Position numbers and translations under genes: made by a program. The notes beneath the pieces are model-generated. The model had not been told where the DNA came from. It did no database searches and saw only the letters and a program-made list of their open reading frames with translations. From IMG/VR virus record IMGVR_UViG_3300031823_000008, positions 1 to 64,000 of that record: DNA of 64,000 nt; one strand, 5' to 3'. Below, one piece after another: positions 2,353-58,522 of this stretch. Numbering within the stretch: the first letter of the stretch is position 1; each line of letters opens with the position of its first letter. This DNA is from a virus.

Positions 2353-3317
2353 TGTTGTTCACAGACGGAGATATCGTCACTTCCGCGAATCTGTCGCAAA
2401 TTGACAGCGAAGTCTTGTCAGTGGCTTCCACCTCAAAGCCCGCGATTCAACTGGACGGTCCGGGCTCCCTCTGCGCCCAGGCATGGCAGGAATGCGGTGG
2501 AAAGATCGCCTCAGCCATGCAGATGTATACCTCATACCTTGCCAGCCCGGGTATGAGCGGTGGCGGAGTGGCGGCCATCTATAACGTCGGGACGGCGGCA
2601 CGCAACCAGGTCAGAGCACGGCTCAATCAGGTGGTGGCGACCGAATCGCAGTACGGACAGACCTCTTCCATGCTGCAGCTCTGGCTTTCGTACACAGCGT
2701 TACGGCTGTTCTTCCGCGATGCCAGCGCGCGGATGGGCAAGGACCGCCTCGAAACCAAATACGAGCGCTATTCGGCGGATGCGGACTACGCCTGGCGGCA
2801 GTTGCGGCAGAATGGCCTTCCCTATATCGCGAGTCCGATGGAAGCGCCCGGGGCGAAGCACGGCGCCAATGCCGGTAGCTGGTCAATCGCGAATCTTTCG
2901 ACCGTGGCGGGGACGGGTACCGCTCCCACCGTGGGGGTGGCAATCACCTATTACGACGCTTCAAAGTATGTCTCTGAGGCGAACACGATGAACGCCGAGA
3001 GCGGGCCGTCGGACATTCTGCAGATCGCGATTCCCGCAGCTTCCGTGCTTCAGGTCTCGATTGCCGGCTTGAATCCGCCCAACGGCACGATGGACCAGGT
3101 GGGGCTCTCACAGGGTGCGTGGACGCCTCTGAACGCGACTCATTGGATTCTCTGGGTCGGCCTGGCCGGATCGCCGCTCTATTGGCAGGCGGCAATCCCG
3201 ATCGCGACGAAGACATACACGCTCGCGGGCGATCCGGTGGCGACGGGAAACATCCTTGGCCTCGGTCAATGGCCGGACTTGAATCTGACCTTCCAGGCGA
3301 CGGTGGGGAGGGGATGA
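2352..3317 (+). CDS. probable head-tail connector/adaptor-region virion protein
   Basis: 321 residues. The N-terminus has LFTDGDIVTSANLSQIDSE, a long helical region spans about residues 70-150 with many Arg and Tyr (KYERYSADADYAWRQLRQNG), and the C-terminal half is beta-rich. Such a helical N-domain with a beta tail in this genomic slot (after coat, before head morphogenesis) fits an adaptor or head-closure protein, but the precise role is an inference. Confidence 0.7.
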   Translation: MLFTDGDIVTSANLSQIDSEVLSVASTSKPAIQLDGPGSLCAQAWQECGGKIASAMQMYTSYLASPGMSGGGVAAIYNVGTAARNQVRARLNQVVATESQYGQTSSMLQLWLSYTALRLFFRDASARMGKDRLETKYERYSADADYAWRQLRQNGLPYIASPMEAPGAKHGANAGSWSIANLSTVAGTGTAPTVGVAITYYDASKYVSEANTMNAESGPSDILQIAIPAASVLQVSIAGLNPPNGTMDQVGLSQGAWTPLNATHWILWVGLAGSPLYWQAAIPIATKTYTLAGDPVATGNILGLGQWPDLNLTFQATVGRG

Positions 3318-3601
3318 ACATGCTTCGCGCGGGACTCGCCCAAGATACTCCCTGGTTTAGCGGGATGCGTTTCATTCTTGCCAGGGCATTGGATCGATGC
3401 GCCGACTTTATCCGCCCGACGGCGAGCATGTCCGATATTCGGATGGGCATGACGCCAAAGCAGGACCGCAAAGTTAGAGCGGCAATTGTTGGAACATTCG
3501 GACCCCGCGAACCTATCTGCCTCCCGTTGCGATATGCCATTCCGGTAAGCGACTTGACGGCAAAGGACATCTCCGAATACCAGGAGTGGGGAGGCCGTTG
3601 A
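3314..3601 (+). CDS. small hypothetical protein
   Basis: 95 residues. The ATG at 3314 overlaps the previous stop (ATGA) and follows GGGGAGGGG, so this start is preferred to longer in-frame starts inside the upstream gene. Rich in Arg and Met, with no recognised domain. Position in the head module suggests a minor virion or assembly role. Confidence 0.62.
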   Translation: MNMLRAGLAQDTPWFSGMRFILARALDRCADFIRPTASMSDIRMGMTPKQDRKVRAAIVGTFGPREPICLPLRYAIPVSDLTAKDISEYQEWGGR

Positions 3602-3606
3602 AAACT

Positions 3607-4668
3607 ATGCTATTCTCATTTCGGAGTTCTCGAAGTCGCCTGCGATCAGCAGGTAGTCGTACCAGGGCTACCCTCGCAGTTTGTACAGAGTTACTCCTCG
3701 CGTTATTCCTGTGCGGGTGCGTCCTGCCCGCTCAGGAGATTAGCGACCACTCCGTCGATTCCAAAACCATCCCCTGGCGATTTGCATATCTCGAACCGGG
3801 ATCCTGTGCCCTCGGCGAAGCCTATCTGAACGTCACGACGGGGCATTTGCGATGGTGCTCTTCGCCCAATACCTGGACCGATCTTCTCGGCGGCGGCGCC
3901 GGAATCTCCGCATGTTCCACGACCCCTCCCACCGCGGGAACCGCAGGACAGGTCTGCCTCGATAGCACCAGCACTCTCCAGGCGTGCCATCAGTCGGGCG
4001 CATGCTCGGTGAGCGGCGATTGGCACGCGGCCGGGAGTTCGTCTCTCACCAATTACTCGACGATTGCGGCACTGACCGGGTATCCGGCCTCCTTTACTCC
4101 GACTGCCCATGCGGCGAGTCATGCGAGTGGCGGAACCGATGCCGTGACGCTGATAGAGTCGCAGGTGACGAACCTACCCTCCGACCTTGCGGCGAAGCAG
4201 GCGACGCTGACCAATTATTCGAGCGTCTCGGCATTGACCGGGTATCCGGCGTCATTCACTCCCACCGCTCACGCGGCATCTCACGCCTCGGGCGGAAGCG
4301 ATCCCGTCACGCTGCTGGAATCGCAGATCACCAACCTTACGGCAGATCTCGCCGCAAGGGCGCTAACGGTGGCCACCGGGACCACTGCTACGAGCGGAGC
4401 CGGGTCAATCAGCAATTTGGGATCGATCACGAGCGCCACCTGTCAAACCCTGACCATCACTTCAGCCAGCGTTTTGAGCACCGATGTTTTGAGCGCGAGT
4501 GCCGTGGGGAACATCGGAGCACTGACTGGGTTCGTTCCAGCGACGACGGGTGGATTGACGATAAGCCCCTGGGCAGGCAGCGGAAACGTAAATTTCGAGG
4601 TCTGCAACTGGACGGCCAGCGCCATCACTTCGGGGAATGTCCGACTTAACTGGAGGGTGGCCCGATAA
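3607..4668 (+). CDS. exported fibre-like protein with tandem 54-residue repeats
   Basis: 353 residues from the ATG at 3607 (GGGGAGG 12 bp upstream; a GTG at 3586 in the same frame is an alternative). After a basic N-terminus there is a hydrophobic segment with LLLALFLCGC, resembling a signal peptide with a possible lipobox. Residues about 147-254 are two tandem 54-residue repeats with AHAASHASGG, a motif common in phage tail and head fibres. A signal peptide on a fibre-like protein is unusual and recurs later in this genome. Probable role: surface fibre or decoration. Confidence 0.65.
   Translation: MLFSFRSSRSRLRSAGSRTRATLAVCTELLLALFLCGCVLPAQEISDHSVDSKTIPWRFAYLEPGSCALGEAYLNVTTGHLRWCSSPNTWTDLLGGGAGISACSTTPPTAGTAGQVCLDSTSTLQACHQSGACSVSGDWHAAGSSSLTNYSTIAALTGYPASFTPTAHAASHASGGTDAVTLIESQVTNLPSDLAAKQATLTNYSSVSALTGYPASFTPTAHAASHASGGSDPVTLLESQITNLTADLAARALTVATGTTATSGAGSISNLGSITSATCQTLTITSASVLSTDVLSASAVGNIGALTGFVPATTGGLTISPWAGSGNVNFEVCNWTASAITSGNVRLNWRVAR
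4045..4368 (+). repeat. two tandem 162-bp coding repeats in fibre-like gene
   Basis: Units at 4045-4206 and 4207-4368 each encode 54 residues beginning LTNYS and containing TGYPASFTPTAHAASHASGG. The proteins are about 80% identical, whereas the DNA has diverged at many synonymous sites, so the duplication is not recent. Confidence 0.85.
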
Positions 4669-4681
4669 ATCGGGAGGGATC

Positions 4682-8342: not shown

Positions 8343-9374
8343 ATGTCGCAGTTTACGTCTCCTTTTGTTGAGCGGCTGGTCATCGCGCCGCAGACCTCTT
8401 TCGCCCTCGTACCGAATAGCGCCGGCGTGTGGACCAGCACCGGCGCGAAGCTCTTGCGCGCGGGATCCGGCTGCAAGATCAAGGCGGATCCGACGCTGAT
8501 TACCAACCCGATGAAGACGGGCACCCGCTCCATGCAGCCTGGCGTCGCGGGGCGAAAAAGCAACAATACCTTCTCGCTTCCCAACGTGCCCATCGTGCCC
8601 TCGGGAACGGGAGGCACGCCCCCTGACATGGATATTCTCATCCAGTCCATCTTCGGCCAGGCGCCAACCGGCAGCGCGTATACGTTGCTCGACACCGGGA
8701 TTGTGCCTTTTATCCTGGCGCGCTTCCAGCATCTGGCGACCACGCTTTCCCAGCAGTTCGCTATCGGTTGTATCACGACGGACTGGTCGATCCTATTCAA
8801 TGGCGACGTCTTCAGCATCTCGGCGAATGGGAAGTGCTTCTGGGTCTTGGACTCGGAGAACTTCGCCAATGAAGACACGACGGGCGCGGGCGGCTTGACC
8901 GCATTCCCGCTGGAACTGGTATCGCCCACGTCTCTCGGCACCTTGCGGCAAGGATTCATCGGTACGGCGACGTTCGACGGTAACGGCGTGGACTCGACCA
9001 CTTTCCCGCTTCTGAAATGCGAGATCAAGGGAAAGACCGGCAACGATTACACGCTCGATGCTTATGGCACGTCCTACGGCGCGCTCCCGTCCGGCGGCCG
9101 GCGCATGGCGAGCCTCAGCTTTACCTTCCAGGATTGCGACACGGCAGCGCTGAACAATCTCAAGGTCAAGGCGAAGGCAAAAACGCCCATGACCATCACG
9201 TTGGTAAACGGCACGCTCACGGGGAACATCACCACGGTCGCGATCAAGGGCGTGCAGCTTGCGGTGCCGGAGTACTCGGACGAAGCAGCGCGCGTCGTTA
9301 CGGCGTTCGGCGACTCACAGGCCAGCGCTTCGACAGCAACAGCGGTGGACGAATTTACGATGACTTTCAGCTAG
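8343..9374 (+). CDS. major tail tube protein
   Basis: 343 residues, beta-rich, with alternating Thr/Gly/Ser strands and the closing region TGNITTVAIKGVQLAVPEYSDEAARVVTAFGDSQAS, typical of long-tailed phage tube proteins. It would polymerise into the tail tube around the tape measure. It precedes the chaperone pair and tape measure in the standard order. AAGGAG lies just upstream of the ATG. Confidence 0.75.
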   Translation: MSQFTSPFVERLVIAPQTSFALVPNSAGVWTSTGAKLLRAGSGCKIKADPTLITNPMKTGTRSMQPGVAGRKSNNTFSLPNVPIVPSGTGGTPPDMDILIQSIFGQAPTGSAYTLLDTGIVPFILARFQHLATTLSQQFAIGCITTDWSILFNGDVFSISANGKCFWVLDSENFANEDTTGAGGLTAFPLELVSPTSLGTLRQGFIGTATFDGNGVDSTTFPLLKCEIKGKTGNDYTLDAYGTSYGALPSGGRRMASLSFTFQDCDTAALNNLKVKAKAKTPMTITLVNGTLTGNITTVAIKGVQLAVPEYSDEAARVVTAFGDSQASASTATAVDEFTMTFS

Positions 9375-9622: not shown

Positions 9623-9877
9623 ATGCCGGTAGACATCAATCGAGCGGCAGGCGTAACGCCTGAAGTGTCGGCGACCGTCGACGACATGTTCGAGTACCAC
9701 CCATGGACCGAGCCCCAGGTCGCTGCGGGTAAGGCCGTCCGCGAAGCCCTCCGCAATGCCGTCAAAGTCATCATCGATAACGTCCCTCCGTCGCCGGATC
9801 GCACCGTCGCGATTCGAAAGCTGAGAGATGCGCGGGCCGACTGTAATAGCGCCATCACCCACGGAGGAAAGTACTAG
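9623..9877 (+). CDS. candidate Acb2/Tad1-type hairpin protein (cyclic-nucleotide sponge, anti-CBASS/anti-Thoeris)
   Basis: 84 residues. Residues 22-84 follow the pattern F-x-YH ... Q ... R-x-A ... I-x-x-x-PPSxxRT-AIRKLRxA ... CNxAI, which matches the two-helix hairpin family known from phage Acb2 and Vs.4-like proteins. Those bind cyclic di- and trinucleotides and so blunt CBASS signalling, and related forms block Thoeris signals. Here the gene sits between tail tube and tail chaperone genes, a place where small inserted genes are common. Its last codons contain GGAGGAAAG, which also serves as ribosome binding site for the next gene. Family membership is recognised by eye; activity is an inference. 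Confidence 0.6.
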   Translation: MPVDINRAAGVTPEVSATVDDMFEYHPWTEPQVAAGKAVREALRNAVKVIIDNVPPSPDRTVAIRKLRDARADCNSAITHGGKY

Positions 9878-10622
9878 CGCCATGCGTTTGAACCTAGTAA
9901 AGACAGGGGTTTCAGCGCAGACTGGAGTTATGGGACGCCCATTTATTCCAAGATCCGATTGTCTGTCATGCGGCGCGAAAGTTAAGCGCTTCGGTAAGAA
10001 GTTTTGCTCCCGAATATGCGCCGCAAAATTTCGGGTGCAACCGATATTGGAGCGGCGCGAGCACCGTGAATGCCTGGTATGCCATCGCATGTTTTCCGAA
10101 AAACCTGCGCTCATGGAGCGCGGCAGAAAATATTGCTCTAAAGCATGCCATGACAAATCACAGGAAAAGCACCACGATTTTGTGTGCTCGAAATGCAAGA
10201 TCCCTAAGACGGCCCTCGATTTCTATGTGGACAGGACCAAGGCGCGGGGGCATGTCGCGCGGTGCAAACAATGCTATTCGGAGACCAGCAGTAAGGTTTT
10301 GGCATTTAAGCCATACCGACGTGAAGCATCGCTTCAGGCGGGAGCTGTCAGACGAGGGCTCGCCTATGAACTAACGCGCGAGCAGTTCATGACGTTCTGG
10401 CAAAAGCCCTGCACGTATTGCGGTGATGCCATCCCGACAGTGGGGCTCGATCGCGTTGAGAACGATAAGGGATATACGCTCGACAACCTTGTTTCGTGCT
10501 GCGCGGTTTGCAACTCCATGAAATCGAGCATGACCATGGCACAGTTTCTTGCGCGGTGCGGTCGGATAGCCGCAAGAACGTCGGATTGCAACTCGGCAAT
10601 TACGCATGGAGGGAAGTACTGA
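9839..10622 (+). repeat. recoded duplicate of the acb2-like gene tail at both sides of the HNH gene
   Basis: Positions 9839-9877 and 10584-10622 both encode the same 12 residues (DCNSAITHGGKY) plus a stop, but 10 of 12 codons differ by synonymous changes, including an AGC/TCG serine switch, and the stops differ (TAG/TGA). Each copy ends with a Shine-Dalgarno-like GGAGGAAAG or GGAGGGAAG that lies just before the following gene's ATG. Confidence 0.9.
9882..10622 (+). CDS. HNH homing-type endonuclease with N-terminal zinc fingers
   Basis: 246 residues from the ATG at 9882. Residues about 25-125 hold three Cys-rich modules (CLSCG...CSRIC, CLVCH...CSKAC, CSKCK...CKQC). The C-terminal part is an HNH domain: CTYCG, then GLDRVENDKGYTLDNLVSCCAVCNSMK. 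Such stand-alone nucleases cut phage DNA and spread by homing into the cut site. The last 12 residues copy the end of the upstream acb2-like gene, so the gene was inserted at, or recombined into, that gene's 3' end while keeping both the upstream protein and the downstream ribosome binding site. Confidence 0.82.
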   Translation: MRLNLVKTGVSAQTGVMGRPFIPRSDCLSCGAKVKRFGKKFCSRICAAKFRVQPILERREHRECLVCHRMFSEKPALMERGRKYCSKACHDKSQEKHHDFVCSKCKIPKTALDFYVDRTKARGHVARCKQCYSETSSKVLAFKPYRREASLQAGAVRRGLAYELTREQFMTFWQKPCTYCGDAIPTVGLDRVENDKGYTLDNLVSCCAVCNSMKSSMTMAQFLARCGRIAARTSDCNSAITHGGKY

Positions 10623-11704: not shown

Positions 11705-14649
11705 GCTACGAACTCAACGTAAATGCAGGCGTTACCGGCCAAAGCTCCCTCTCCGCGCTGACTGCGGCGACGGAGAAGCAGTCCGCTTCCACCCAGGCTC
11801 TGAATAACGCGCTCTATGGCGCGAGCGCTGCGCAGGAAAAGTATACCCTCGGCGCTCAGAAGCTGGCCATTGAACAGGCGAAAATCGAGCAGCTCACGAT
11901 TCAGTACCGAATCGCGCTTCTGGGGCAGACGACGGCCACGGATGGAGCGACGGCATCGACAGAGCGATTGAGCGGGGCAACAGCGGGCGCTACGGGCAAC
12001 GTGCGGAATATGACCGCGGCGTTGCGCGGGCTCGAAGGCGGCATGCCGATCCGGTCGGCGGCGATGTTCCTGAGCCAGATTCAAGGGATCAACACGGCGA
12101 TGCAGTTCGCGTTTCCGGTGTTCGGGGCGATCGCGCTCTTCGGGGTGGCCGAGCAGATCGTCGACAAGCTGGGGTCGCATCTAACGGCGTGGAAACAGAT
12201 CGACGAGGCCGAAAAGGAAGCTACCAGCGACCTCAAGAAATATTCCGATGAGGCGCAAAACAGCCTGAGAGGGTTGCGAAGCATCCAGACTGAACTCGCC
12301 GCTCACAGGGCGGGCCCAGCGGTTGCGGCAACGATGACCGCGGAGAGCCTGAAGGGCGAGCTGGCTCAATCCGAGCAGCGGGCCGCCATGCTCGAAAAGC
12401 AGCGCGCGGCACTCCAGTTATTCATCTCTAATACCCAGGGCGGCAGCTTCCATGCCCTGACGGGGGAGCAGCGGGCGCTCGTCGGGGCGGTGGTCCCGGA
12501 TGTGGAAACCGCGCTCAATCAGGACACCCCGATCAGCTCGGCTTTCAACTCTAGCCAATTGAAGCTCGCCCAGACCGGCCTGAAGGATATGGGGGCGCGG
12601 ATCTATGCGGCGAATACGGACGTAGAGCAGAAACGCGCGCTGGTGACACAGGCCGGAACCGCTACGGAACCGAGCCAGCAGCAGAGACAGGATCGCGAAA
12701 ACAGCGACGCCAAAAAAGCGGAGACGGAGGCCCTCGAAAAGGCGAGACGCGCGGCCCAGGAATTCGCGTCAATGCTGGAGCGCGCAACAGATGCAGCGAC
12801 CAAATTCCAGCAGGGCTATACCAACAAGCTGATTTCCGGAGGCGATGCCCTTTTTCAGCAGACCCACGATCCGTTTGAAGCGAACCAGGGATTCGGCACG
12901 CAGATGAACTCGCGGATGATGGACAACGTCTCGAAGAGCCTGACGCTTTCGACCATCGGGCAGAATCGCAACCCGTGGAGTCAGGATGCAGACGTAACTG
13001 GCTTCTACAGCAATGTCCAGAATCAAAATCGGATCAGCGACGAGCGACAAATCGCCGTGCTCAAGCAGGGATCGCAGGAGCGTGGCACTGGAATGGACCC
13101 TTCGGCGGCGCTTCAAAATACGCTGCAAATGCTGGACCTGGAAGTGAAGATCAAGGCAGCCCATCAGGACATTTGGGACATCGACCAGGCGCGCTTCGTG
13201 GCCGGCCTCGAGGCGGGCAAGGCGGAATTCGATTACGCGCAGAAAATCATCGCCCTCAAGAAACAGCAGGCCGACCAACAGGCGCAGCAAGCGCGTTCCC
13301 TCGCCGATGGCCTGTTCGATGCTCTCCACTCGCGCACGACGGGCACATGGTTCAAGTCCTTTGCGCTGAATCAGGGGAAACAGCTCTTCAGCAACGCCGC
13401 AACCCCAATCCTCGAAGGCGCAACCCATGCGCTCGGCAGCGTCATCCCCGCATCGGCGCAAACCGGGATGCTCGGAGGCCTCCTACACGGGACCGTCTTC
13501 GATTCCGCCAATGCAGCACCGCAGCAGACCGCAAATAATACCCTCGAAACGGTGAAGCAGGTGCTGGGATTGCGTGGCGATCTGAAGGGTATCTTCACCG
13601 GAAACAATGACCCGAATGCCCAGGTCCCTCCAGGCGGGGCAGGATCCGGCGGCGGGAGCGCCTTCAATCCGTTTATGGGATCCGGAGGCGGTCTGATGGG
13701 CACTGGAATCGGCGCGGGAGGGGGCGGCACGGGTCTCTATGGTCTGCCGAACACGTTCAACGCCTTCAGTCCGTCCCTTTCCTCGACCGGGAGCCTCAGC
13801 GTCGCGAGCAGCGCTCTGGCTCAGTTTGCATCGGGAGTATCGGGCGGTCCCAGCATGGCTCTGGCGCGTTTCATGGGGACGCAGCCTCCTGCGGGGACGG
13901 TAGGGTATGGCGCCGATGGCACGCCCCATGACGATATGGGCAATCCGATTGTCGCCTCTACCGCAACCCAGATCGGGCAAGGCGTCAGCATTGCGGGCGC
14001 TGTGGCATCAGGCACAGTATCCGCCATCAAATCCTTCGAGAAAGGCGGAGCCTCCGGAGCCCTGGGAGGCGTCGCGGCCCTCGCCGGTATGGCGTCCCTG
14101 ATCCCCGGAGCTGGACTCATTGCGGCGCCTATCGCGGCCATTGCCGGGCTTTTCAGTGCAGTCTTGTCGACCGGTCCCCAGCAGCGCGCTCAGCAGATTA
14201 CCGACGACATCAACAAGGGCGCTTATCTCGCGCCGACTGCGTTGAATGTCACCCAGGGCATGAACGGCACCTATGAGGATTTCGATGCACGGGGCAATCT
14301 TCGAACGTCGAACCTTTCCGCCGTCCCGACAGTAGCCGAGCCGTACATTACCAAACGGACATTGAACGGGCAGCAGGGTTGGTATGACGCTCCGGGTGTT
14401 GTCACAGCGCCCTACTCGGGCAGTGCGACGGGGTCAGGATTGACGCCAGTTTCGAATGCTCCGGGAGCCGGGACGGGCGGCATCACGATCAATGTTGCGG
14501 GCGGGATTAACGCGATGGATTCCAGTTCATTCCATGACTTCCTGCAGAAGCCCGGAAATTCAATGGCTGTCGGGGATTCCCTCGCGACCCATTTGCAGTC
14601 GCATGAGGGGCGAGCGAGTAACGCAATTCGCTATGTGGCGGGGGCGTGA
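11701..14649 (+). CDS. tail tape measure protein
   Basis: 982 residues starting at GTG 11701. Long helical coiled-coil regions (about 15-90, 160-260, 315-480) alternate with hydrophobic segments near residues 120-160 and a long Ala/Gly-rich hydrophobic stretch near residues 760-830, typical of proteins that set tail length and assist DNA entry. At about 0.15 nm per residue the tail would be near 150 nm. It follows the frameshifted chaperones, as expected. Confidence 0.9.
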   Translation: MSYELNVNAGVTGQSSLSALTAATEKQSASTQALNNALYGASAAQEKYTLGAQKLAIEQAKIEQLTIQYRIALLGQTTATDGATASTERLSGATAGATGNVRNMTAALRGLEGGMPIRSAAMFLSQIQGINTAMQFAFPVFGAIALFGVAEQIVDKLGSHLTAWKQIDEAEKEATSDLKKYSDEAQNSLRGLRSIQTELAAHRAGPAVAATMTAESLKGELAQSEQRAAMLEKQRAALQLFISNTQGGSFHALTGEQRALVGAVVPDVETALNQDTPISSAFNSSQLKLAQTGLKDMGARIYAANTDVEQKRALVTQAGTATEPSQQQRQDRENSDAKKAETEALEKARRAAQEFASMLERATDAATKFQQGYTNKLISGGDALFQQTHDPFEANQGFGTQMNSRMMDNVSKSLTLSTIGQNRNPWSQDADVTGFYSNVQNQNRISDERQIAVLKQGSQERGTGMDPSAALQNTLQMLDLEVKIKAAHQDIWDIDQARFVAGLEAGKAEFDYAQKIIALKKQQADQQAQQARSLADGLFDALHSRTTGTWFKSFALNQGKQLFSNAATPILEGATHALGSVIPASAQTGMLGGLLHGTVFDSANAAPQQTANNTLETVKQVLGLRGDLKGIFTGNNDPNAQVPPGGAGSGGGSAFNPFMGSGGGLMGTGIGAGGGGTGLYGLPNTFNAFSPSLSSTGSLSVASSALAQFASGVSGGPSMALARFMGTQPPAGTVGYGADGTPHDDMGNPIVASTATQIGQGVSIAGAVASGTVSAIKSFEKGGASGALGGVAALAGMASLIPGAGLIAAPIAAIAGLFSAVLSTGPQQRAQQITDDINKGAYLAPTALNVTQGMNGTYEDFDARGNLRTSNLSAVPTVAEPYITKRTLNGQQGWYDAPGVVTAPYSGSATGSGLTPVSNAPGAGTGGITINVAGGINAMDSSSFHDFLQKPGNSMAVGDSLATHLQSHEGRASNAIRYVAGA

Positions 14650-14843
14650 TGCCGTCAATCCTTCCTCGCCTTAATCGCATCAACCTCACTGAGCTTCATG
14701 GGGCGCGGCATTCGCTCCCCCCCATACACCCGGGCCACCTGATATTCGTGTATCGCGCTAAAGTGTCACTTTTTGCAACAGTCTGCGCGCCCGCAGCATC
14801 GCTCCGGGACGTATCCGAAAAAGAAACTGAGGGCGCTGCTTAA
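14649..14843 (+). CDS. small hypothetical protein between tape measure and distal tail genes
   Basis: 64 residues. The ATG at 14649 overlaps the tape measure stop by one base (TGATG), and the stop abuts the next ATG. The sequence is basic at the N-terminus with a moderately hydrophobic centre (HLIFVYRAKVSLFATVCA). No family was recognised; supported by the tight packing. Confidence 0.5.
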   Translation: MPSILPRLNRINLTELHGARHSLPPIHPGHLIFVYRAKVSLFATVCAPAASLRDVSEKETEGAA

Positions 14844-43471: not shown

Positions 43472-43816
43472 CTAGCCCTCCGGTCCTTTCTCCGGCTCCG
43501 CATCGGGGTTCACGGGGGACTGGATCGCCATAAAAGTCTTCAGCGCCGACTGCGCCGCCTGACGCTTGGTCATACCCTGAGGGTCGCCTTCGTCGGAACC
43601 GGCGATGAAACAACTGCAGCGGCCTTCAATGTGCGCCACCGATCCGACGACGGAGCGAAAGCCGCACTCAAAATGCACGGCATCCGAAAATGCCGGATGC
43701 CGGTCGTATTGCTCCAGGGCTTCTCCGCACCAGGTACAGCGCGTTAACCCGACCCGCGATCCAGTCCCTCGTGAACCCACGCCGGCGGAAGACAGCATCT
43801 CAGGGCTAAACCTCAT
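43472..43816 (-). CDS. zinc-binding early protein
   Basis: 114 residues from the ATG at 43816, supported by GGAGGAG directly upstream. The motif CTWCGEALEQ..., HFECGFRSVVGSVAHIEGRCSCF gives two Cys pairs plus His, matching a small phage/bacterial zinc-binding family of unknown function. The C-terminus is helical then Pro/Glu-rich. Confidence 0.7.
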   Translation of the reverse strand: MRFSPEMLSSAGVGSRGTGSRVGLTRCTWCGEALEQYDRHPAFSDAVHFECGFRSVVGSVAHIEGRCSCFIAGSDEGDPQGMTKRQAAQSALKTFMAIQSPVNPDAEPEKGPEG

Positions 43817-44615: not shown

Positions 44616-44806
44616 TTGGGCACCGCGATGAAATCACTGGGATCGAGAGAATCCGCCTCTCCCCAGACGCATGGCGCGCAAGCTGTCCAACTGAGTGCCT
44701 TTGACAGGTCCTTCGAGGCCGGATTATCGCAGTTGTCGCAGAGCACCAGGCCGTCGCGGATCCGCTTCTGCCGGCGGGCGCGTTCGATGATTTTGTTGAC
44801 GGTCAT
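44612..44806 (-). CDS. small zinc-finger protein
   Basis: 64 residues from the ATG at 44806, overlapping the nuclease gene's stop (ATGA). After a basic helix (NKIIERARRQKRIRDG) come LCDNCDNPASKD and ACAPCVWG, a four-Cys zinc site. Probably nucleic-acid binding; coupled to the RecB-like nuclease by overlap. Confidence 0.66.
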   Translation of the reverse strand: MTVNKIIERARRQKRIRDGLVLCDNCDNPASKDLSKALSWTACAPCVWGEADSLDPSDFIAVPK

Positions 44807-45588
44807 TCGCTCACCGTCCCGCCGAAATCCTTCTGACAATTCCTCCACGCGCCGCAGTATTTCCTGGAGCACATGAAGTGCGATCTGTTGGGGAGCCAGA
44901 CTCCGGCGCGAATGCTCTGCTGCACCAGCGGATAAAGCTTCTCGGTGGCGTCGATGGCGGCCTGTTCCGATTTGCAATCGAGCCGGATGAGCTGGGGGGC
45001 TTTCGTCTTCACCAGCGTGTCGAGCCTCGCCTCTCCGGAAGCCTCCGGACAAAGCTGCTGATATGTGGCCAACTGAAAACGGTAATCGCTTCCAATCTCG
45101 GTCGGTTTCTTGGCGGCCGTCTTCAGATCGATAATTCGTCCGGAGACGTCCATCAGATCGATGAAGCCTTGCACCAACACCCCGCCAATGCGTCCAGAGA
45201 CGTGCCGTTCCACCGCGGCCGGCTGGATCGAGGGACAGGCCTCGTCCAGATATTTCAGCGCCAGGGCGAGCCCTTGAGCCTTCATGGTGGCCGGATCTTC
45301 ATCGTCGCGGAACTCGGTGTCTTTGGCCTTTTCCGCCCAGGCGCTGTTATAGATTGCGCTCACGCCGGCAATATCCAGATCCTGGTGAGTTTCCAGCTTC
45401 TGAGCGAAGTTCTCGCCGATCGCCGAATGGACAGACGAACCCAGGGTCAGGGCACCGGTGGGCGGGTCGTCGATCTTGACCACCTTGCGGTAGTAATACT
45501 TGGCGGAGCATCCCAGGTATTGGGAGGCGCTGCTGGGGGAGAGAATGTCCCCCGGAGCGTCGTAGAGAATTGCGGTGCGGGTGCTCAT
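44803..45588 (-). CDS. RecB/Cas4-family PD-(D/E)XK exonuclease with Fe-S-type cysteines
   Basis: 261 residues. The family motifs are in order: SPSSASQYLGCSAKYYYRK with the first Cys (about residue 27), GSSVHSAIGENF, GFIDLMDVSGRIIDLKTAAKKP (catalytic D...D-x-K), YRFQLATYQQL, and a C-terminal Cys trio FMCSRKYCGAWRNC. The Cys set matches the 4Fe-4S cluster of AddB/Cas4-type nucleases. It would resect DNA ends for phage recombination, with the adjacent 45585 protein as probable partner. Confidence 0.85.
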   Translation of the reverse strand: MSTRTAILYDAPGDILSPSSASQYLGCSAKYYYRKVVKIDDPPTGALTLGSSVHSAIGENFAQKLETHQDLDIAGVSAIYNSAWAEKAKDTEFRDDEDPATMKAQGLALALKYLDEACPSIQPAAVERHVSGRIGGVLVQGFIDLMDVSGRIIDLKTAAKKPTEIGSDYRFQLATYQQLCPEASGEARLDTLVKTKAPQLIRLDCKSEQAAIDATEKLYPLVQQSIRAGVWLPNRSHFMCSRKYCGAWRNCQKDFGGTVSE

Positions 45589-47468: not shown

Positions 47469-47758
47469 TGCAATTGAAAGAGCACGCCGGAACTATCACG
47501 GCTCTCAATATATTCGGCTGGATTGCAGCAATTCTCGCGCCCCTCCTGGGAGCATACTGCTGGCTCGTGGCTCAAAACGGCGCGGAGGATAGCGCGGCGA
47601 TGCGGCCGCTCCTGTTCGCAGCGGGGGCCAGCTTCATATTCGGTCTCGTGCTGATTGGCTTGTCTGCCTTAATCGAAATCTCCGCGGAAGTTTCCAGGGC
47701 GGCGCATCTATTACTCGAAGAATCGAGATCGCGAGCAGCGGAGGCCACGCTGAAATAG
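47465..47758 (+). CDS. two-helix membrane protein, possible partner of the 47172 gene
   Basis: 97 residues with two hydrophobic segments (LNIFGWIAAILAPLLGAYCWL and LLFAAGASFIFGLVLIGLSAL) and an acidic/basic helical tail. Same topology and length as the preceding protein, so the two may act together. No family was recognised. Confidence 0.66.
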   Translation: MMQLKEHAGTITALNIFGWIAAILAPLLGAYCWLVAQNGAEDSAAMRPLLFAAGASFIFGLVLIGLSALIEISAEVSRAAHLLLEESRSRAAEATLK

Positions 47759-47763
47759 CCCCC

Positions 47764-48107
47764 TTGCAGAGTGTGGGTAGAAATGAGCATTGAAGAAAAT
47801 CTGCTTCTCGACTTCTCGGAGCTACGCTGGCTGGTAATCTCCTGTACGGATTGCCACACGGAAGTATCCATTGACGCCGCAGAGACCAGTACCGCAATCC
47901 CATCTCAGTGCCCAAGCTGCAACAGGAGCTATGAGGGTTCCGTTCGCCAGAACCTCGACACCTTTCGCCGGCTCTACGCTACGGCCAGGTGGAAAGTCCG
48001 GGTCGTCAAAGGGAGCGAACCCCAGAAATAGGCCGCTTGCAGAGTGTGGCTGAAAGTGACGGTTTAGGATGAAAAAACTCTTAAGTCGGCCCTTTTGCAG
48101 AGTGTGG
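47764..48107 (+). repeat. three 13-bp direct repeats TTGCAGAGTGTGG
   Basis: Exact copies lie at 47764-47776, 48037-48049 and 48095-48107. The first two each follow a stop codon closely (AAATAG then GC-rich bases) and flank the 47783-48031 gene, like boundaries of a small cassette. The third lies inside the 31-residue frame at 48069. Confidence 0.85.
47783..48031 (+). CDS. small zinc-ribbon protein
   Basis: 82 residues from the ATG at 47783. ISCTDCHTEVSID...SQCPSCNRSY is a standard four-Cys zinc ribbon, followed by a basic helix (NLDTFRRLYATARWKVRV). Probable nucleic-acid-binding or regulatory protein. It is flanked by 13-bp direct repeats. Confidence 0.7.
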   Translation: MSIEENLLLDFSELRWLVISCTDCHTEVSIDAAETSTAIPSQCPSCNRSYEGSVRQNLDTFRRLYATARWKVRVVKGSEPQK

Positions 48108-49553: not shown

Positions 49554-49736
49554 CTACGCCCCCGCCGCCCTCGGCTTCCGGCGCGACTTCTCCCGTTCGA
49601 GCACGTCGCGCAGCTCAGGAACATGAAGCAGAATCCGCCGCTCCCGGCTCAGTTCCTCATCGGTGAGGCCTTTCAATGCTTCGACGTAGGCGTCCAGACT
49701 TTGATTGAGGGCTTCACGGCGCAGTTGGGCAATCAT
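49554..49736 (-). CDS. small helical protein, start region split from its operon by an insertion
   Basis: 60 residues from the ATG at 49736 (MIAQLRREALNQ, LTDEELSRERRILLHVPELRDVLEREKS). The start codon lies in a 25-bp direct repeat whose other copy (50136-50160) sits 26 bp beyond the receiver gene; there the same start reads only MIAQL before a stop. The gene therefore probably belonged to the 50878-50186 operon before the 49751-50135 segment was inserted. Confidence 0.6.
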   Translation of the reverse strand: MIAQLRREALNQSLDAYVEALKGLTDEELSRERRILLHVPELRDVLEREKSRRKPRAAGA

Positions 49737-49773
49737 ATGTGCAGGATACACTTTCAAAAATCAGGAAGAAGCT

Positions 49774-49992
49774 TCAAGGCGTGATTCGCGGCAACGGGGT
49801 GTGATCTGCTGACCGGAATTCTCGGCCCGGGGTAGACGCCATGCGGCCAAACCGTCGGCGAAGCGCCGCTGGCCGATGGCGCGGACAGCGCTTCGATGGA
49901 CCCGGAGCCAGCGGCTTCAACGGGATGGGTCCGAGGCAGTAGGGGCAGCCGTGCAGCGGCACGATCCGCCGGCAGCGGCGGCATCTCTTCAT
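49774..49992 (-). CDS. small zinc-finger cargo protein inside the cassette
   Basis: 72 residues: MKRCRRCRRIVPLHGCPYCLG gives a CxxC/CxxC ribbon, followed by a basic Pro/Arg-rich tail whose coding sequence overlaps the 49785-49881 hairpin element. The ribosome binding site is unclear. Resembles small phage zinc-ribbon proteins. Confidence 0.45.
   Translation of the reverse strand: MKRCRRCRRIVPLHGCPYCLGPIPLKPLAPGPSKRCPRHRPAALRRRFGRMASTPGREFRSADHTPLPRITP
49785..49881 (+). repeat. two-hairpin element, copy A1
   Basis: Starts TTCGCGGCAAC. CGCCAT (49837-49842) and CGGCC (49844-49848) pair with GGCCG (49871-49875) and ATGGCG (49876-49881), enclosing AAACCGT and an inner hairpin CGGCG-AAG-CGCCG (49856-49868). 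It differs from copy A3 only by paired changes in the inner hairpin. Confidence 0.8.
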
Positions 49993-50011
49993 GCTCCATC
50001 ATGCGCCCAAT

Positions 50012-50113
50012 GCCCGGCGGACGGGCAGCGCTGCATCGGCGACGGTTTGACCGTCCGCTCTCCCCCCGGGCGCACCGTCCTGCCCCAGCAGCACCCACCT
50101 TGTTGCCGCGATA
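50012..50113 (-). repeat. two-hairpin element, copy B1 (reverse)
   Basis: GCGGACGG (50017-50024) pairs with CCGTCCGC (50051-50058) around an inner hairpin CGCTG-CAT-CGGCG (50029-50041). A second hairpin (CTGC-CCCA-GCAG type) lies near 50080. The outer end reads TTGCCGCG, the reverse of the A-type end. The conserved internal loop reads TCAAACCGT on the reverse strand. Confidence 0.75.
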
Positions 50114-50185
50114 AACAGGAGCATGCCGTCACAACTGGGCAATCATATGTGCAGGATACAGGGAATTGGCAGGTAGGCTGGAAGG

Positions 50186-50584
50186 TTATCGGCCGGAGCC
50201 GGCATGCGATCCCGGTTCAGCCTTCACCCGCTCCAGCAGAGCTTTCACCCGCGCCAGCAGATCTGCCTTCAGGTGATCCTTCTCGAGGATCTGCCACCCG
50301 CCATGCAGCACGGCCAGGTCCCCGTCGGCCTTCCCGGTTAGCAGGATCACCCGCATCGCCGGCCACGCCTCCTTCAATTTCTCCGCCACATCGGTGCCCA
50401 GGATCCCCGGCAGGATTACGTTGGCCAGCAAGAGATCGATGGGGCGCGGAAAGGCGAGCCCGATGCGAAGACCGTCCTTTCCGGTTTTGGCCGACAGGAT
50501 TTCATAGGCCTCCGCCTCGAGCAGGATGCTCTTTACCAGCTTCAGGATGGCTGGATCGTCTTCGACAATCAGAATCGTTCTCAT
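50186..50584 (-). CDS. degenerate response-regulator receiver protein
   Basis: 132 residues with the receiver fold: acidic pocket VEDD (8-10), LLLANVILPG where the phosphoacceptor Asp is replaced by Asn55, switch Thr in LLTGKA (T83) and the conserved Lys in LEKDH (K102). Without the Asp it cannot be phosphorylated normally, so it may act as a constitutive or decoy receiver. A stand-alone LuxR domain gene lies 3 bp upstream. Probably captured from the host. Confidence 0.8.
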   Translation of the reverse strand: MRTILIVEDDPAILKLVKSILLEAEAYEILSAKTGKDGLRIGLAFPRPIDLLLANVILPGILGTDVAEKLKEAWPAMRVILLTGKADGDLAVLHGGWQILEKDHLKADLLARVKALLERVKAEPGSHAGSGR

Positions 50585-50587
50585 AGC

Positions 50588-50878
50588 TCAGGCAGCGCTC
50601 CTCATGCCTTTGCAAAACGGCGAATCACAGGCGCACCCTTTGGGATGCAACCCGGGCAAACAGTCCCTCCCCCGGATCAATGCGGCGGGATGCTGGAGTG
50701 CATAGACTACCAGTTGGGACCTCGAAACTTGGGCTTTCCTGCAGATATCGGCAATGTGGGAGTTTACGGTGTTAACGGTGATTTCGAGCTCGTGTGCGAT
50801 TATCTTCGCCGGTGAGCCCAGGCAGATCAATTCGAGAATCTCGCGTCTGCGCCTGCTCAACGTGAAGGTTTGCCTCAA
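50588..50878 (-). CDS. stand-alone LuxR/GerE helix-turn-helix protein
   Basis: 96 residues. LSRRRREILELICLGSPAKIIAHELEITVNTVNSHIADICRK is a full GerE domain; the C-terminus has CACDSPFC, a possible metal site. It immediately precedes the receiver gene, so the two halves of a NarL-type response regulator appear as separate proteins. Likely a transcription regulator of phage or host genes. Confidence 0.78.
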   Translation of the reverse strand: MRQTFTLSRRRREILELICLGSPAKIIAHELEITVNTVNSHIADICRKAQVSRSQLVVYALQHPAALIRGRDCLPGLHPKGCACDSPFCKGMRSAA

Positions 50879-53154: not shown

Positions 53155-53252
53155 TTCCGATCGAGCAATGGCCGGAACCTGAGATCTATGAGCTGTTGAG
53201 CTGGGATCTTCCTGGTCAGCGCTCGAAGATCAGGCAGCGGCCTAAGGTGTGA
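53151..53252 (+). CDS. 33-residue peptide ending in repeat element A2
   Basis: Starts at GTG 53151 overlapping the previous stop (GTGA) and encodes MIPIEQWPEPEIYELLSWD and a basic tail, stopping at TGA 53250-53252, directly at the left edge of the A2 element. It may be the 5' part of a gene truncated when the element arrived. Confidence 0.4.
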   Translation: MIPIEQWPEPEIYELLSWDLPGQRSKIRQRPKV

Positions 53253-53303
53253 TTCGCGGCAAGCGGGTGTGATCTGGTCGCCTAAGAGGCGCTGGCCGAT
53301 GGC
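53253..53303 (+). repeat. two-hairpin element, truncated solo copy A2
   Basis: TTCGCGGCAAGCGGGTGTG joins directly to the inner hairpin CGCCTAAGAGGCG and the right half of the outer stem (GGCCGATGGC). About 46 bp present in A1/A3, including the left half of the outer stem, are missing. No facing B copy was found nearby. Confidence 0.72.
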
Positions 53304-53305
53304 AG

Positions 53306-53617
53306 TCAGGCTGACGCGATCGCGGACCGAAAGTAGACGATCTTTTGGAAACAGGCCATATGGAATTGTGCCTGTTTCACGTGCTTGCCCTTGCCCTGAA
53401 ATAAGATCACCGGCACCCGATCACGGCATAGCCCGCAATCACCGCAATCCTCCGGGTGGTCATCCCATCGAGGATCGTCTTCCGAAACGCCGATAGGCTC
53501 CCGGCATAGGGCGCAGCAGCACTCCGGATCTTTGCATCCAGGCTCGCCGCATGAACCGCGCGACGACCAGCGAATAGCGCCAAGGTATTGGGGCTTTATC
53601 TGGAAATCAAGAGCCAT
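53306..53617 (-). CDS. Cys-rich zinc protein
   Basis: 103 residues. Many Cys in CGEPGCKDPECCCALC and DCGDCGLCRDR, a further His/Cys pair (FHMACF) near the C-terminus, and no membrane segments. Resembles small phage zinc proteins with a FHxxC end. It lies directly right of the solo A2 element. Function unknown. Confidence 0.66.
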   Translation of the reverse strand: MALDFQIKPQYLGAIRWSSRGSCGEPGCKDPECCCALCREPIGVSEDDPRWDDHPEDCGDCGLCRDRVPVILFQGKGKHVKQAQFHMACFQKIVYFRSAIASA

Positions 53618-53623
53618 AGAACC

Positions 53624-54505
53624 ATGAATATCAAACCCATTCGCGACGTGCTGGTCTGCCTCGCCCTCGCCGCGTTACTCGCAGTCCTGGTGCAGACCGC
53701 CCTCGCTGTCCATTCCGTCAATCTCGCCGTGGCCAGTCTGCCGGCGCAGCTCACCGGGATCCGCCAGGATCTGACCTCCCAGCTTTCGCGTGTGGTGGAC
53801 GGCGATCCGCGAAGCCTGGATATCGAAGACAAAGTACCGTTGCGCGCGCTCTTACTGACGTTTCTGAACGGCCAGATTCGCGGTTTGCGAAGCGATACCA
53901 GCAAACAGCTTACCGCCATCGAATTCGATGCCATGACAGCGATTCGCGAGCAGGGTTCAGCCCTGAACGGCCAGGTGGCCGAAGCGTTGAAGATCACCAA
54001 TGCGCGGACCGGGCAGGCCCTCGACCAGCTCGCTGAATTGCGCGCCGATCTGGCGCCGACGTTCAAGAACATGACCAGCATCACGGCTCATGCCGATGAG
54101 GCCGCTGCAATTCTCTTCCGGCGCGACGCGCTTCCGGCGCAAACCCTCGGATTGATCGCGGCCGCCAAAGTCGCCACGGGGCAGACGGCACTGACAATGC
54201 GCGATGTCCAGGACGCGATGCCTCAGATGCTCGCGAGCTTCCAGAAAATCGGCAATAACTCGGACAAGCTCACCGCCGAGACCATCGCCACCGCCAAGGA
54301 ATCGACCAGGCTGGTAAAGAATCTCGCGGACAATACCACCCCGCTGCCGAAGTGGATCCGCTACCCGGCGCAGGTCGTCGGGCTTTTGGGAAGTGCCGCC
54401 CTCCCTGTCATCGGCATTGAAAAGCTGGCCACTACCAGCACCATTTCGAGCACCGTCGTGCAGGTGGTCAACGGCAAGTCCGCTACCGCCAAGTCCAAGG
54501 AGTAA
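53624..54505 (+). CDS. membrane protein with long coiled coil
   Basis: 293 residues from the ATG at 53624. N-terminal membrane segment (VLVCLALAALLAVLVQTALAV), a long helical region (about 35-245) and a second hydrophobic stretch near residues 250-275 (AQVVGLLGSAALPVIGI). It heads a forward group of three genes. Such proteins recur in phages next to small membrane genes; possible lysis or membrane-remodelling role. Confidence 0.68.
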   Translation: MNIKPIRDVLVCLALAALLAVLVQTALAVHSVNLAVASLPAQLTGIRQDLTSQLSRVVDGDPRSLDIEDKVPLRALLLTFLNGQIRGLRSDTSKQLTAIEFDAMTAIREQGSALNGQVAEALKITNARTGQALDQLAELRADLAPTFKNMTSITAHADEAAAILFRRDALPAQTLGLIAAAKVATGQTALTMRDVQDAMPQMLASFQKIGNNSDKLTAETIATAKESTRLVKNLADNTTPLPKWIRYPAQVVGLLGSAALPVIGIEKLATTSTISSTVVQVVNGKSATAKSKE

Positions 54506-55083: not shown

Positions 55084-55203
55084 GGGCTTTTCGCGGCAAC
55101 GGGGTGTGATCTGCTGACCGGAATTCTCGGCCCGGGGTAGACGCCATGCGGCCAAACCGTCGCCTAAGAGGCGCTGGCCGATGGCGAGAAAGAAAGAATT
55201 TCG

Positions 55204-55650
55204 ATGTATCCGTGTTTCCTGATTGAAGCGATCTACGATGAGCCCGGCAGCATGCTCCCGGACAAAGGATGGGACCCGCTCGGGCGCTCCATCATGGGCT
55301 GGATAAGGAAAGACACGGGCGAGGAACGCCAGCACAACAGTCAGTTCGGCGTCGGCGCTATGTGGTTCGCCACATGGCAATCTCGCAATTGGGACTGGGA
55401 AAACGAGACAGAGCCGCACTTGCTTGTGCGCTGTCCAAACGGCGAGGGTACGCGCGATTGGGATATCGATTCGCGCTGTAGTAACTGCGGGCTCCCCTCA
55501 GACAAAATTCACCGCTGCTGGGTCCGGCACGGAACGCCGCCTCTGATCACCGTAGACAAACACGGCGTCACCTGCAATGCCGGCGCGGGAAGCATAGCGC
55601 TCCCGAAGTGGCATGGGTTTCTCCGCAACGGCAGTTTAGTGCTGGCTTAG
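55204..55650 (+). CDS. conserved phage protein of unknown function (cassette cargo)
   Basis: 148 residues. Conserved-looking parts are WDIDSRCSNCGLP, IHRCWVRHGTPPLITVDKHG and GAGSIALPKWHGFL, which match a protein seen in many phages without known function. The Cys and His residues suggest a metal site. It lies between facing hairpin elements A3 and B2. Confidence 0.7.
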   Translation: MYPCFLIEAIYDEPGSMLPDKGWDPLGRSIMGWIRKDTGEERQHNSQFGVGAMWFATWQSRNWDWENETEPHLLVRCPNGEGTRDWDIDSRCSNCGLPSDKIHRCWVRHGTPPLITVDKHGVTCNAGAGSIALPKWHGFLRNGSLVLA

Positions 55651-55662
55651 CGGTTTCATCAG

Positions 55663-55836
55663 TCAGTCGCCTTCCTTCAACGCCCGGATCGCCCGTTCAG
55701 TGATTGCGAGGCTCGCCTCCAACTTCCCGCGCCGTTCTCCGTGCGCGAACTGCAACCGATAAATGAGAGCCTGCCGATAATCTCTCCTATCTTTTAACTG
55801 CAGCTCCGCCCGGCCTTTCGCGGTCCTCATCCTCAT
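55663..55836 (-). CDS. 57-residue basic helical protein (cassette cargo)
   Basis: From the ATG at 55836 (a second in-frame ATG is at 55830). Arg-rich helix (ELQLKDRRDYRQALIYRLQF...) then LEASLAITERAIRALKEGD. It converges on the 55204 gene inside the cassette. Good helical coding character but no ribosome binding site was confirmed. Confidence 0.48.
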   Translation of the reverse strand: MRMRTAKGRAELQLKDRRDYRQALIYRLQFAHGERRGKLEASLAITERAIRALKEGD

Positions 55837-55957
55837 ACAGCAACCCTACACCCGGCGGACGGGCAGCGCCGCACCGGCGACGGTTTGACCGTCCGCTCTC
55901 CCCCGGGCGCACCGTCCTGCTTAAAGCAGACCACTCTCCGTTGCCGCGAATAACAAA

Positions 55958-57352: not shown

Positions 57353-57633
57353 TGAAGGCCCTGGGAGATCTCCCCCGCGCCATACGGATGGCCTTTCGCA
57401 TCGCCTGGAATTGCATCCACCCGCGGCGCGATCGCCGCGAACTCATCATCCTGCGCGACACCCTGGTGAGCAATTTCAAACGGGCATTTCCCGCGCGCTT
57501 CCCAGGCGATTCCCAGGACATGATCGAACTTCTGGCCGCGACCGTGATGGTCCAACGGCAGGATATCCGGGCACTCCGACAGATTCTGGCAGCGGTGCGA
57601 GCCAGAAAAGGAAACAATGAAGCGAATTCTTAG
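57352..57633 (+). CDS. hypothetical protein
   Basis: 93 residues, basic and helical (PRAIRMAFRIAWNCIHPRRDRRELIILRD), sharing one base with the previous stop and overlapping the patatin gene by 17 bp. Possibly membrane-peripheral. No family was recognised. Confidence 0.62.
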   Translation: MKALGDLPRAIRMAFRIAWNCIHPRRDRRELIILRDTLVSNFKRAFPARFPGDSQDMIELLAATVMVQRQDIRALRQILAAVRARKGNNEANS

Positions 57634-58522
57634 CCTGGATGGCGGCGGAGTCCGCGGCGCCCTGACCACCTGCTTCCTCGTCGAGCTGGAAAGGCGCACC
57701 GGCAAACTCTGCCGCGAGTACTTCGACCTGGTCGCCGGCACTTCCACGGGCGCTCTGATTGCCACGGCTATCGCTGCCGGCATTCCAGCGACCACCATCC
57801 TCGAAATCTATCAGCAGGACTGCCCGAAGCTGTTCCACCTCTCCACGGTCGAGTCCTGGGCGGAGCGCATCCTCAAGGGTTATGCCTATCACCCGGAAGC
57901 GGTTAAGCAGATCCTGGTGAACCGGCTGGGAGCCTCAGCATCCTGGAAGCTCAACGACTCGCCAGTCCGTCTCCTCCTCACCGCCAAAGGGATGAATGGC
58001 CACCCCTGGTATTTCGTGCGCGACAACCCGAAGAACGCCGGCACCACAGGCGGGCTCTCTCTTCTCGATTGCGCGATCGCCTCGGGAGCAGCTCCCACCT
58101 ATTTCGCGCCCTGGTATGTTTCGCCCGTCTCCATCCTGGTCGGCTGGTGCTTCGACGGAGGAACCGGCATCACCGGCAATCCAGTCCACCAGGCCGTCGT
58201 GGAAGCTTTCCGCTACGATGATTTCGACCCTGCGGATACGCGCGTCATCTCCCTAGGCACCGGCTTTGTTCCGGATCTCCAGACGAATCCGCCTGCAGGT
58301 CTGCTCGACACATTGACCTGGACCATCGACACTTTGCTCGACGCGCCCATCGATGAGCAGAGCAATCTCGTGAATCTCTACTACGCGGGCATCCTGCAGC
58401 GGTATAACTGGCAACTTCCCGCGGCGGTGGATATGGCGGACGCAGGTGCGATCCCCGGCCTTGTGGAGCTGGGCCAAAAGGTCGTGCCGGCGATGGACTG
58501 GGACGCCATTCTCAAGGATTAA
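57617..58522 (+). CDS. patatin-like phospholipase
   Basis: 301 residues. Oxyanion loop DGGGVRG (8-14), nucleophile elbow GTSTG (Ser43) and the catalytic Asp in FDGG near residue 180 make a complete Ser-Asp dyad. No signal peptide, so it acts inside the cell. Patatins hydrolyse membrane lipids; in bacteria they serve as CBASS effectors (CapV), and in a phage one might aid lysis or interfere with host signalling. It lies just before the lysis genes. Confidence 0.85.
   Translation: MKRILSLDGGGVRGALTTCFLVELERRTGKLCREYFDLVAGTSTGALIATAIAAGIPATTILEIYQQDCPKLFHLSTVESWAERILKGYAYHPEAVKQILVNRLGASASWKLNDSPVRLLLTAKGMNGHPWYFVRDNPKNAGTTGGLSLLDCAIASGAAPTYFAPWYVSPVSILVGWCFDGGTGITGNPVHQAVVEAFRYDDFDPADTRVISLGTGFVPDLQTNPPAGLLDTLTWTIDTLLDAPIDEQSNLVNLYYAGILQRYNWQLPAAVDMADAGAIPGLVELGQKVVPAMDWDAILKD

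What the first reader, a model, noticed from the sequence alone, without database searches (positions are those of the whole stretch)
49726..50160. Insertion bounded by a 25-bp direct repeat separates a gene from its operon
The same 25 bp occur at 49726-49750 and 50136-50160. One copy holds the start codon of the 49554 gene; the other lies right after the receiver gene and gives a dead 5-codon frame. Between them is a 385-bp segment with facing A1/B1 elements and a small zinc-finger frame. The simplest reading is that a cassette was inserted at the gene start and duplicated 25 bp of target.
Basis: partly seen in the sequence, partly recalled or inferred. Interest (0 to 1): 0.72.

Follow-up and report, generated by a model that had tools for sequence, protein, structure and literature searches.

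The report
Phage mini-cassette bounded by inverted hairpins
In a soil-type phage genome, a 385-base mini-cassette carrying a tiny zinc-ribbon-like gene sits at the start of another gene, flanked by an exact 25-base repeat; it is one of several small gene cassettes in this phage and its relative that are bounded by inverted hairpin-bearing ends and lack any transposase gene of their own.

Summary
Observation confirmed: the 25 bp are identical at 49726-49750 and 50136-50160. The segment between carries facing ends A1 and B1, whose ~90-nt imperfect inverted repeat beats 1000 shuffles. The insertion reading is largely supported. A ~73%-identical relative (L006, 41-kb IMG/VR contig) has the receiver gene and the 60-aa gene 14 nt apart with no trace of the element, but its start region has diverged, so a single 25-mer cannot be shown. 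E1 is one of three family members in the window: E3 (55090-55950) has a 96%-identical A end and different cargo; E2 (~53223-53625) is decayed. E1 and E2 share 31 nt outside the A tip; this homology begins 3 nt from the direct repeat in E1 and at the L006 breakpoint in E2, placing the left end of the mobile unit. A1 and A3 differ at 4 of 97 positions, all as two compensatory pairs in the end hairpin. A second family (F) with unrelated ends occurs in both phages, with cargo swapped at an orthologous locus. Most likely a non-autonomous, hairpin-ended mini-cassette moved in trans. The mobilising enzyme is unknown; no further copies were found in IMG/VR, GTDB genomes, phages or plasmids.

The parts
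49726..49750 (.). direct repeat copy 1; on the minus strand holds the start codon (49736-49734) of the 60-aa gene
50136..50160 (.). direct repeat copy 2, behind the receiver gene; minus strand reads MIAQL*
49554..49736 (-). 60-aa gene displaced from the receiver gene; 75% identical to L006 8390-8572, no family match
50186..50584 (-). receiver-domain gene (PF00072, E=9.5e-15)
49754..49784 (+). outer left segment of E1, homologous to the outer left segment of E2 (53223-53252); 0 of 2000 shuffles reach the score
49785..49881 (+). end A1: tip TTCGCGGCAACG, GTAG at the foot of the hairpin 49837-49881
50015..50111 (-). end B1 (inverted): same tip, GGAG at the hairpin foot, hairpin 50015-50058
49774..49992 (-). 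72-aa Cys-rich frame (two CxxC pairs), likely cargo; its last third is encoded by A1
   Evidence: no Pfam, PHROG or phage match
53223..53303 (+). E2: outer segment plus decayed A end (about 45 nt missing from the middle of A)
53306..53617 (-). E2 region: 103-aa Cys-rich ORF; stretch 53228-53602 absent from L006
55090..55186 (+). end A3 of E3, 96% identical to A1; all 4 differences are two compensatory pairs
55204..55650 (+). E3 cargo: 148-aa phage protein, relatives in other phages without E ends
55663..55836 (-). E3 cargo: 57-aa ORF facing the 148-aa gene
55853..55950 (-). end B3 of E3; ends 7 nt before the start codon of the 464-aa gene
43473..43808 (.). F cassette: a second family, inverted ends 43473-43528 / 43756-43808 round a 118-aa Cys-containing ORF (minus); orthologous F locus in L006 holds different cargo

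Best explanation
E1 (49751-50135) is a small non-autonomous mobile cassette that inserted at the start of the 60-aa gene and duplicated 25 bp of target. Shown: the repeat, the inverted hairpin-bearing ends, sister copies with other cargo, and absence of the element from a relative with the same gene order. Inferred: its ends are recognised as folded hairpins by an enzyme supplied in trans (by the Acidobacteria-type host or a co-resident element); cargo between the ends can be replaced; and insertion between genes is tolerated because it leaves both neighbours readable. The cargo is small Cys-rich proteins in E1 and E2 and a common phage accessory protein in E3. The phage's own exonuclease-based recombination may swap cargo through the shared ends.
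For: Exact 25-bp repeat. L006: receiver stop at 8375, 60-aa gene ATG at 8390, no E ends in the 41-kb record. Ends A and B are inverted copies in E1 and E3 (scores 33 and 38 against shuffle maxima 20 and 17). In a scan of the window for inverted-repeat pairs 100-1500 nt apart, E3, E1 and F are the only hits above shuffle level. A1 and A3 differ only at sites 74/82 and 76/80, G-C to C-G and G-C to T-A; about 4e-6 by chance under random substitution. Hairpins A1, A3 and B3 are more stable than shuffles. E1 and E2 share the outer 31 nt, starting where L006 homology stops in E2 and 3 nt from the repeat in E1. E copies are 96% alike at A while the phage backbone is about 68-88% identical to L006, so the spread is recent. 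The 127-bp overlap of the record ends exceeds every exact E repeat, so the assembly word should resolve them. Cargo swap at the orthologous F locus, and E3 and F2 beside the same 464-aa gene.
Against: No direct repeat at E2 or E3. The inverted ends are 24-34 nt inside the E1 repeats. Y1 (HUH) transposons, which the hairpin ends resemble, are not expected to make target duplications (own knowledge). No transposase of that kind in the phage, and no copy of the ends found elsewhere. Only one relative, about 73% identical at the locus, is available.
Confidence: 0.62

Rival explanations
1. The ends are not transposon ends but shared 5' leaders or start-associated repeats (as in Cluster K mycobacteriophages): structured sequences in front of accessory genes, duplicated with them by ordinary recombination.
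For: A3 lies 17 nt before the 148-aa start codon, and B3 and B1 lie directly before the starts of inward ORFs; in L006 F2 two convergent ORFs both begin inside F ends. Start-associated inverted repeats are known in phages (PMC3203893).
Against: Every complete cassette has a second, inverted end also where no convincing inward ORF starts: E1 left end, window F and L006 F1, where the far end encodes the C-terminus. E1 is flanked by a direct repeat and E1/E2 share sequence outside the tips.
Confidence: 0.17
2. Site-specific integration: the 25 bp are attL/attR-like copies made by a tyrosine recombinase, with the cassette arriving as a small circle.
For: Exact 25-bp repeat without terminal inverted repeats at its borders; the phage encodes a tyrosine integrase and a serine recombinase.
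Against: No further copy of the 25 bp in the window or L006; sister elements lack such repeats; both recombinases have other expected roles in a temperate phage.
Confidence: 0.1
3. Local duplication of the gene start by replication slippage or illegitimate recombination, with the E1 DNA captured in the same repair event.
For: Direct repeat seen only at E1; E1 keeps 34 and 24 nt outside the inverted tips, as a captured fragment would.
Against: The outer left segment begins at the L006 breakpoint in E2 too, so it behaves as part of the element.
Confidence: 0.11

Closest known systems
MPME1/MPME2, ultra-small mobile elements of mycobacteriophages
   Same: about 440-bp phage elements with inverted repeats, seen by comparison with empty sites (PMC3029335); small ORF and no recognised transposase (own knowledge)
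   Different: MPME1 copies are identical in sequence and add 6 bp at the left end; E copies keep the ends and change the cargo, have ~90-nt hairpin-bearing ends, and E1 has a 25-bp direct repeat
GTAG-tagged REPs/REPINs and TIR elements of RAYT/TIRYT tyrosine transposases
   Same: hairpin with GTAG or GGAG at its foot, in inverted pairs; B ends contain GGGGAGAG, fitting the TIRYT TIR motif GGGGWSAS, and A ends 7 of 8; TIRYTs form a distinct group in Acidobacteria (PMC3733652), the host lead here (Soli_cterm domain in L006). Several Planctomycetota Y1 genes fetched here are flanked by ~85-110-nt imperfect inverted repeats
   Different: no Y1 transposase in the phage, unrelated cargo between the ends, 25-bp direct repeat at E1, internal loop CAAACCGT not seen in the REPs inspected
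IS1202-group insertion sequences
   Same: unusually long target duplications, 16-28 bp (PMC10132070)
   Different: 1.5-kb elements with terminal inverted repeats and a DDE transposase; E1 has none and its inverted repeats are subterminal
SAS/ESAS repeats of Cluster K mycobacteriophages
   Same: repeats and imperfect inverted repeats tied to gene starts in phages (PMC3203893)
   Different: 13- and 17-bp repeats, not flanking whole cassettes

Membership tests
MPME | about 440-bp element with inverted repeats, variably present among close relatives | tested here: inconclusive
   size and layout similar; presence/absence seen against one distant relative only
MPME | sequence identity with MPME1/2 | tested here: not met
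   blastn of E1 and E3 against 50,697 phage records found no match; that collection should hold MPME-bearing mycobacteriophages, though this was not checked record by record
REPIN / RAYT-TIRYT element | hairpins tagged GTAG/GGAG in inverted pairs | tested here: met
REPIN / RAYT-TIRYT element | cognate Y1 tyrosine transposase with matching ends | tested here: inconclusive
   no PF01797 in the phage or in L006; an acidobacterial host genome could not be reached
REPIN / RAYT-TIRYT element | insertion without target duplication | tested here: not met
   E1 has a 25-bp direct repeat; E2 and E3 show none
IS1202-group derivative | terminal inverted repeats with 5'-TGT ends at the duplicated target | tested here: not met
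   E1 borders CTTTC.../...CACAAC; inverted repeats 24-34 nt inside
described structured RNA (Rfam) | match at gathering score | tested here: not met
   0 matches in the window; E1 and E3 searched permissively gave only sub-threshold hits

The most novel reading that the evidence does not exclude
These phages use an exchange system for small genes: several families of inverted, hairpin-bearing ends (E, F) act as interchangeable sockets between genes, in which unrelated small cargo genes are swapped; an integron-like role carried out without a resident cassette integrase, and partly with the ends translated into the cargo proteins.
Probability: 0.17. Interest if true: 0.8.

Novelty: new variant of a known kind. 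Interest (0 to 1): 0.52.

Why it matters
Phage genomes gain and lose small unexplained genes constantly, and the vehicle is seldom visible. Here the vehicle's ends can be read: near-identical structured ends with unrelated cargo, one copy flanked by an exact target repeat, and an uninterrupted site in a relative. If confirmed, it gives a testable route by which tiny accessory genes spread within a phage lineage.

Tried and rejected
Exact A-tip and B-core patterns in IMG/VR: none. A pattern matching all four ends: none in IMG/VR; 27 hits in GTDB genomes, none with extended similarity to the ends and near the number expected by chance. A looser tip-to-loop pattern: one chance hit inside a tail-type gene, L041. 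Relatives by receiver, LuxR-type and 60-aa proteins: only L006 each time. Distant blastn of E1 in phages and plasmids and of E3 in phages: none. E3 cargo relatives: seven viral contigs and six phages, none with E ends in those inspected. Rfam: nothing. Model R1 was built with a misplaced structure and serves only as a sequence profile; it finds the four ends and E2 and nothing else convincing. E. coli RayT against plasmids gave no acidobacterial record among those named. Inversion of the loop as the cause of the A1/A3 differences was rejected: one version is not the reverse complement of the other. Tandem duplication of the whole 60-aa gene was rejected: the insert shows no further similarity to it.

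Full report
What was checked. The 25-bp repeat is exact at 49726-49750 and 50136-50160. On the minus strand the order is receiver gene (50186-50584, PF00072), upstream repeat copy reading MIAQL*, insert, downstream repeat copy starting the 60-aa gene. The record is a virus of 66,246 bases whose ends overlap by exactly 127 bases, as in a circular assembly with a 127-base word; this is longer than any exact E repeat (73 nt), so misassembly through these repeats is unlikely (inference).

The insert belongs to a family. Its inner part from 49785 to 50111 has inverted ends A1 and B1, 68% identical over 91 nt. E3 (55090-55950) has A3, 96% identical to A1 over 97 nt, and B3, about 80% identical to B1, round unrelated cargo. 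E2 (from 53223) has a decayed A end. All four complete ends match one pattern that no shuffle of the window yields. A scan for inverted-repeat pairs 100-1500 nt apart in the window returns only E3, E1 and F above the shuffle level.

The ends carry a maintained hairpin. A1 and A3 differ at four of 97 positions, 74, 76, 80 and 82; these are two base pairs of the apical stem, both changed on both sides. Random placement would give this with a probability near 4e-6; templated correction of a quasi-palindrome could also produce it, so selection is likely but not proven. A and B have different lower stems that both pair, with the conserved unpaired CAAACCGT in between and GTAG or GGAG at the foot. 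B1 alone is only weakly more stable than shuffles (z -2.4 as RNA, -1.0 as DNA).

The uninterrupted site. L006, from a 41-kb IMG/VR contig about 73% identical round the locus and collinear over most of the genome, has the receiver gene ending at 8375 and the 60-aa gene starting at 8390, and no E end anywhere in the record. It also lacks E2: homology stops at 53227 and resumes at 53603-53627. E1 and E2 share 31 nt outside the A tip (0 of 2000 shuffles). In E2 this shared part starts where L006 homology stops; in E1 it starts 3 nt from the repeat. The two estimates of the left boundary agree, which is the best evidence that the 25-bp repeat borders the mobile unit.

A second family. Window 43473-43808 and two places in L006 (about 14500-14800 and 2440-3060) carry other ends, consensus TAGCCCT...TCTTCCGC...GGGTTCACGAGGGACTGGATCGC, again inverted at both sides. 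The window F and L006 F1 are at orthologous places with unrelated interiors; in both, the ends are translated at the N- and C-terminus of the single ORF (read). L006 F2 lies directly before the 464-aa gene, the place that E3 holds in the window, and like E3 holds two facing ORFs. So alternative cassettes with different ends occupy the same site.

How it most likely works. A non-autonomous cassette with hairpin ends inserts between genes through an enzyme supplied in trans. The anatomy resembles REP/TIR elements of RAYT/TIRYT transposases: tag at the hairpin foot, inverted pairs, GGGGWSAS motif in B, an Acidobacteria group of such transposases (PMC3733652), and a host lead to Solibacter-like bacteria from the Soli_cterm domain in L006. 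A sample of Planctomycetota Y1 genes shows inverted repeats of 85-110 nt flanking the gene in roughly a quarter to a third of 30 loci (no control set was run). Against it stands the 25-bp repeat, since Y1 transposition is not expected to duplicate its target. Long duplications of 16-28 bp are known for the IS1202 group (PMC10132070), but E1 lacks that group's terminal ends. The mobiliser therefore stays open. The phage encodes a PD-(D/E)XK exonuclease (44803-45588), a tyrosine integrase and a serine recombinase; exchange of cargo through shared ends by homologous recombination is possible without a transposase.

What is ordinary. The E3 cargo is a phage accessory protein found without E ends elsewhere. 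Small non-autonomous phage elements are known (MPME, PMC3029335). What is new is the family: conserved structured ends with changing cargo, in at least two unrelated end types in one phage lineage.

Noticed in passing
window 9839-10622: An HNH/endonuclease-VII-like gene (phrog_1035, E=1.8e-22) is inserted at the 3' end of a phage gene relative to L006's genome. The last 12 residues DCNSAITHGGKY* are encoded twice with 13 of 39 bases different and the peptide unchanged: the upstream gene has a recoded tail, and the endonuclease ORF ends in the original tail (40/40 identical to the relative). The insertion seems to have brought its own recoded gene end.
   Followed up: partly
window 43473-43808; L006 2440-3060 and 14500-14800: Second family (F) of inverted-ended cassettes whose ends are translated into the cargo proteins (GSRGTGSR at the N-terminus, IQSLVNP at the C-terminus).
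   Followed up: partly
window 57617-58522: Patatin-like protein with similarity to CBASS phospholipases (NF041079 E=1e-36, below its cut-off), in a phage.
   Followed up: no
window 47752-47786 and 48025-48059: 35-nt direct repeat, 83% identical, 273 nt apart, at gene boundaries.
   Followed up: no
window 3318-4671: 1.35-kb stretch absent from the relative, holding a 162-nt tandem repeat in a probable tail-fibre-like ORF.
   Followed up: no
window 50588-50878 and 50186-50584: Adjacent LuxR-type HTH protein and lone receiver domain, well conserved with L006 (89% for the HTH protein): a possible phage-borne signalling pair.
   Followed up: no
L057, L059, L063, L065 and others: Y1 transposase genes of Planctomycetota flanked by 85-110-nt imperfect inverted repeats made of REP-like hairpins.
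   Followed up: partly
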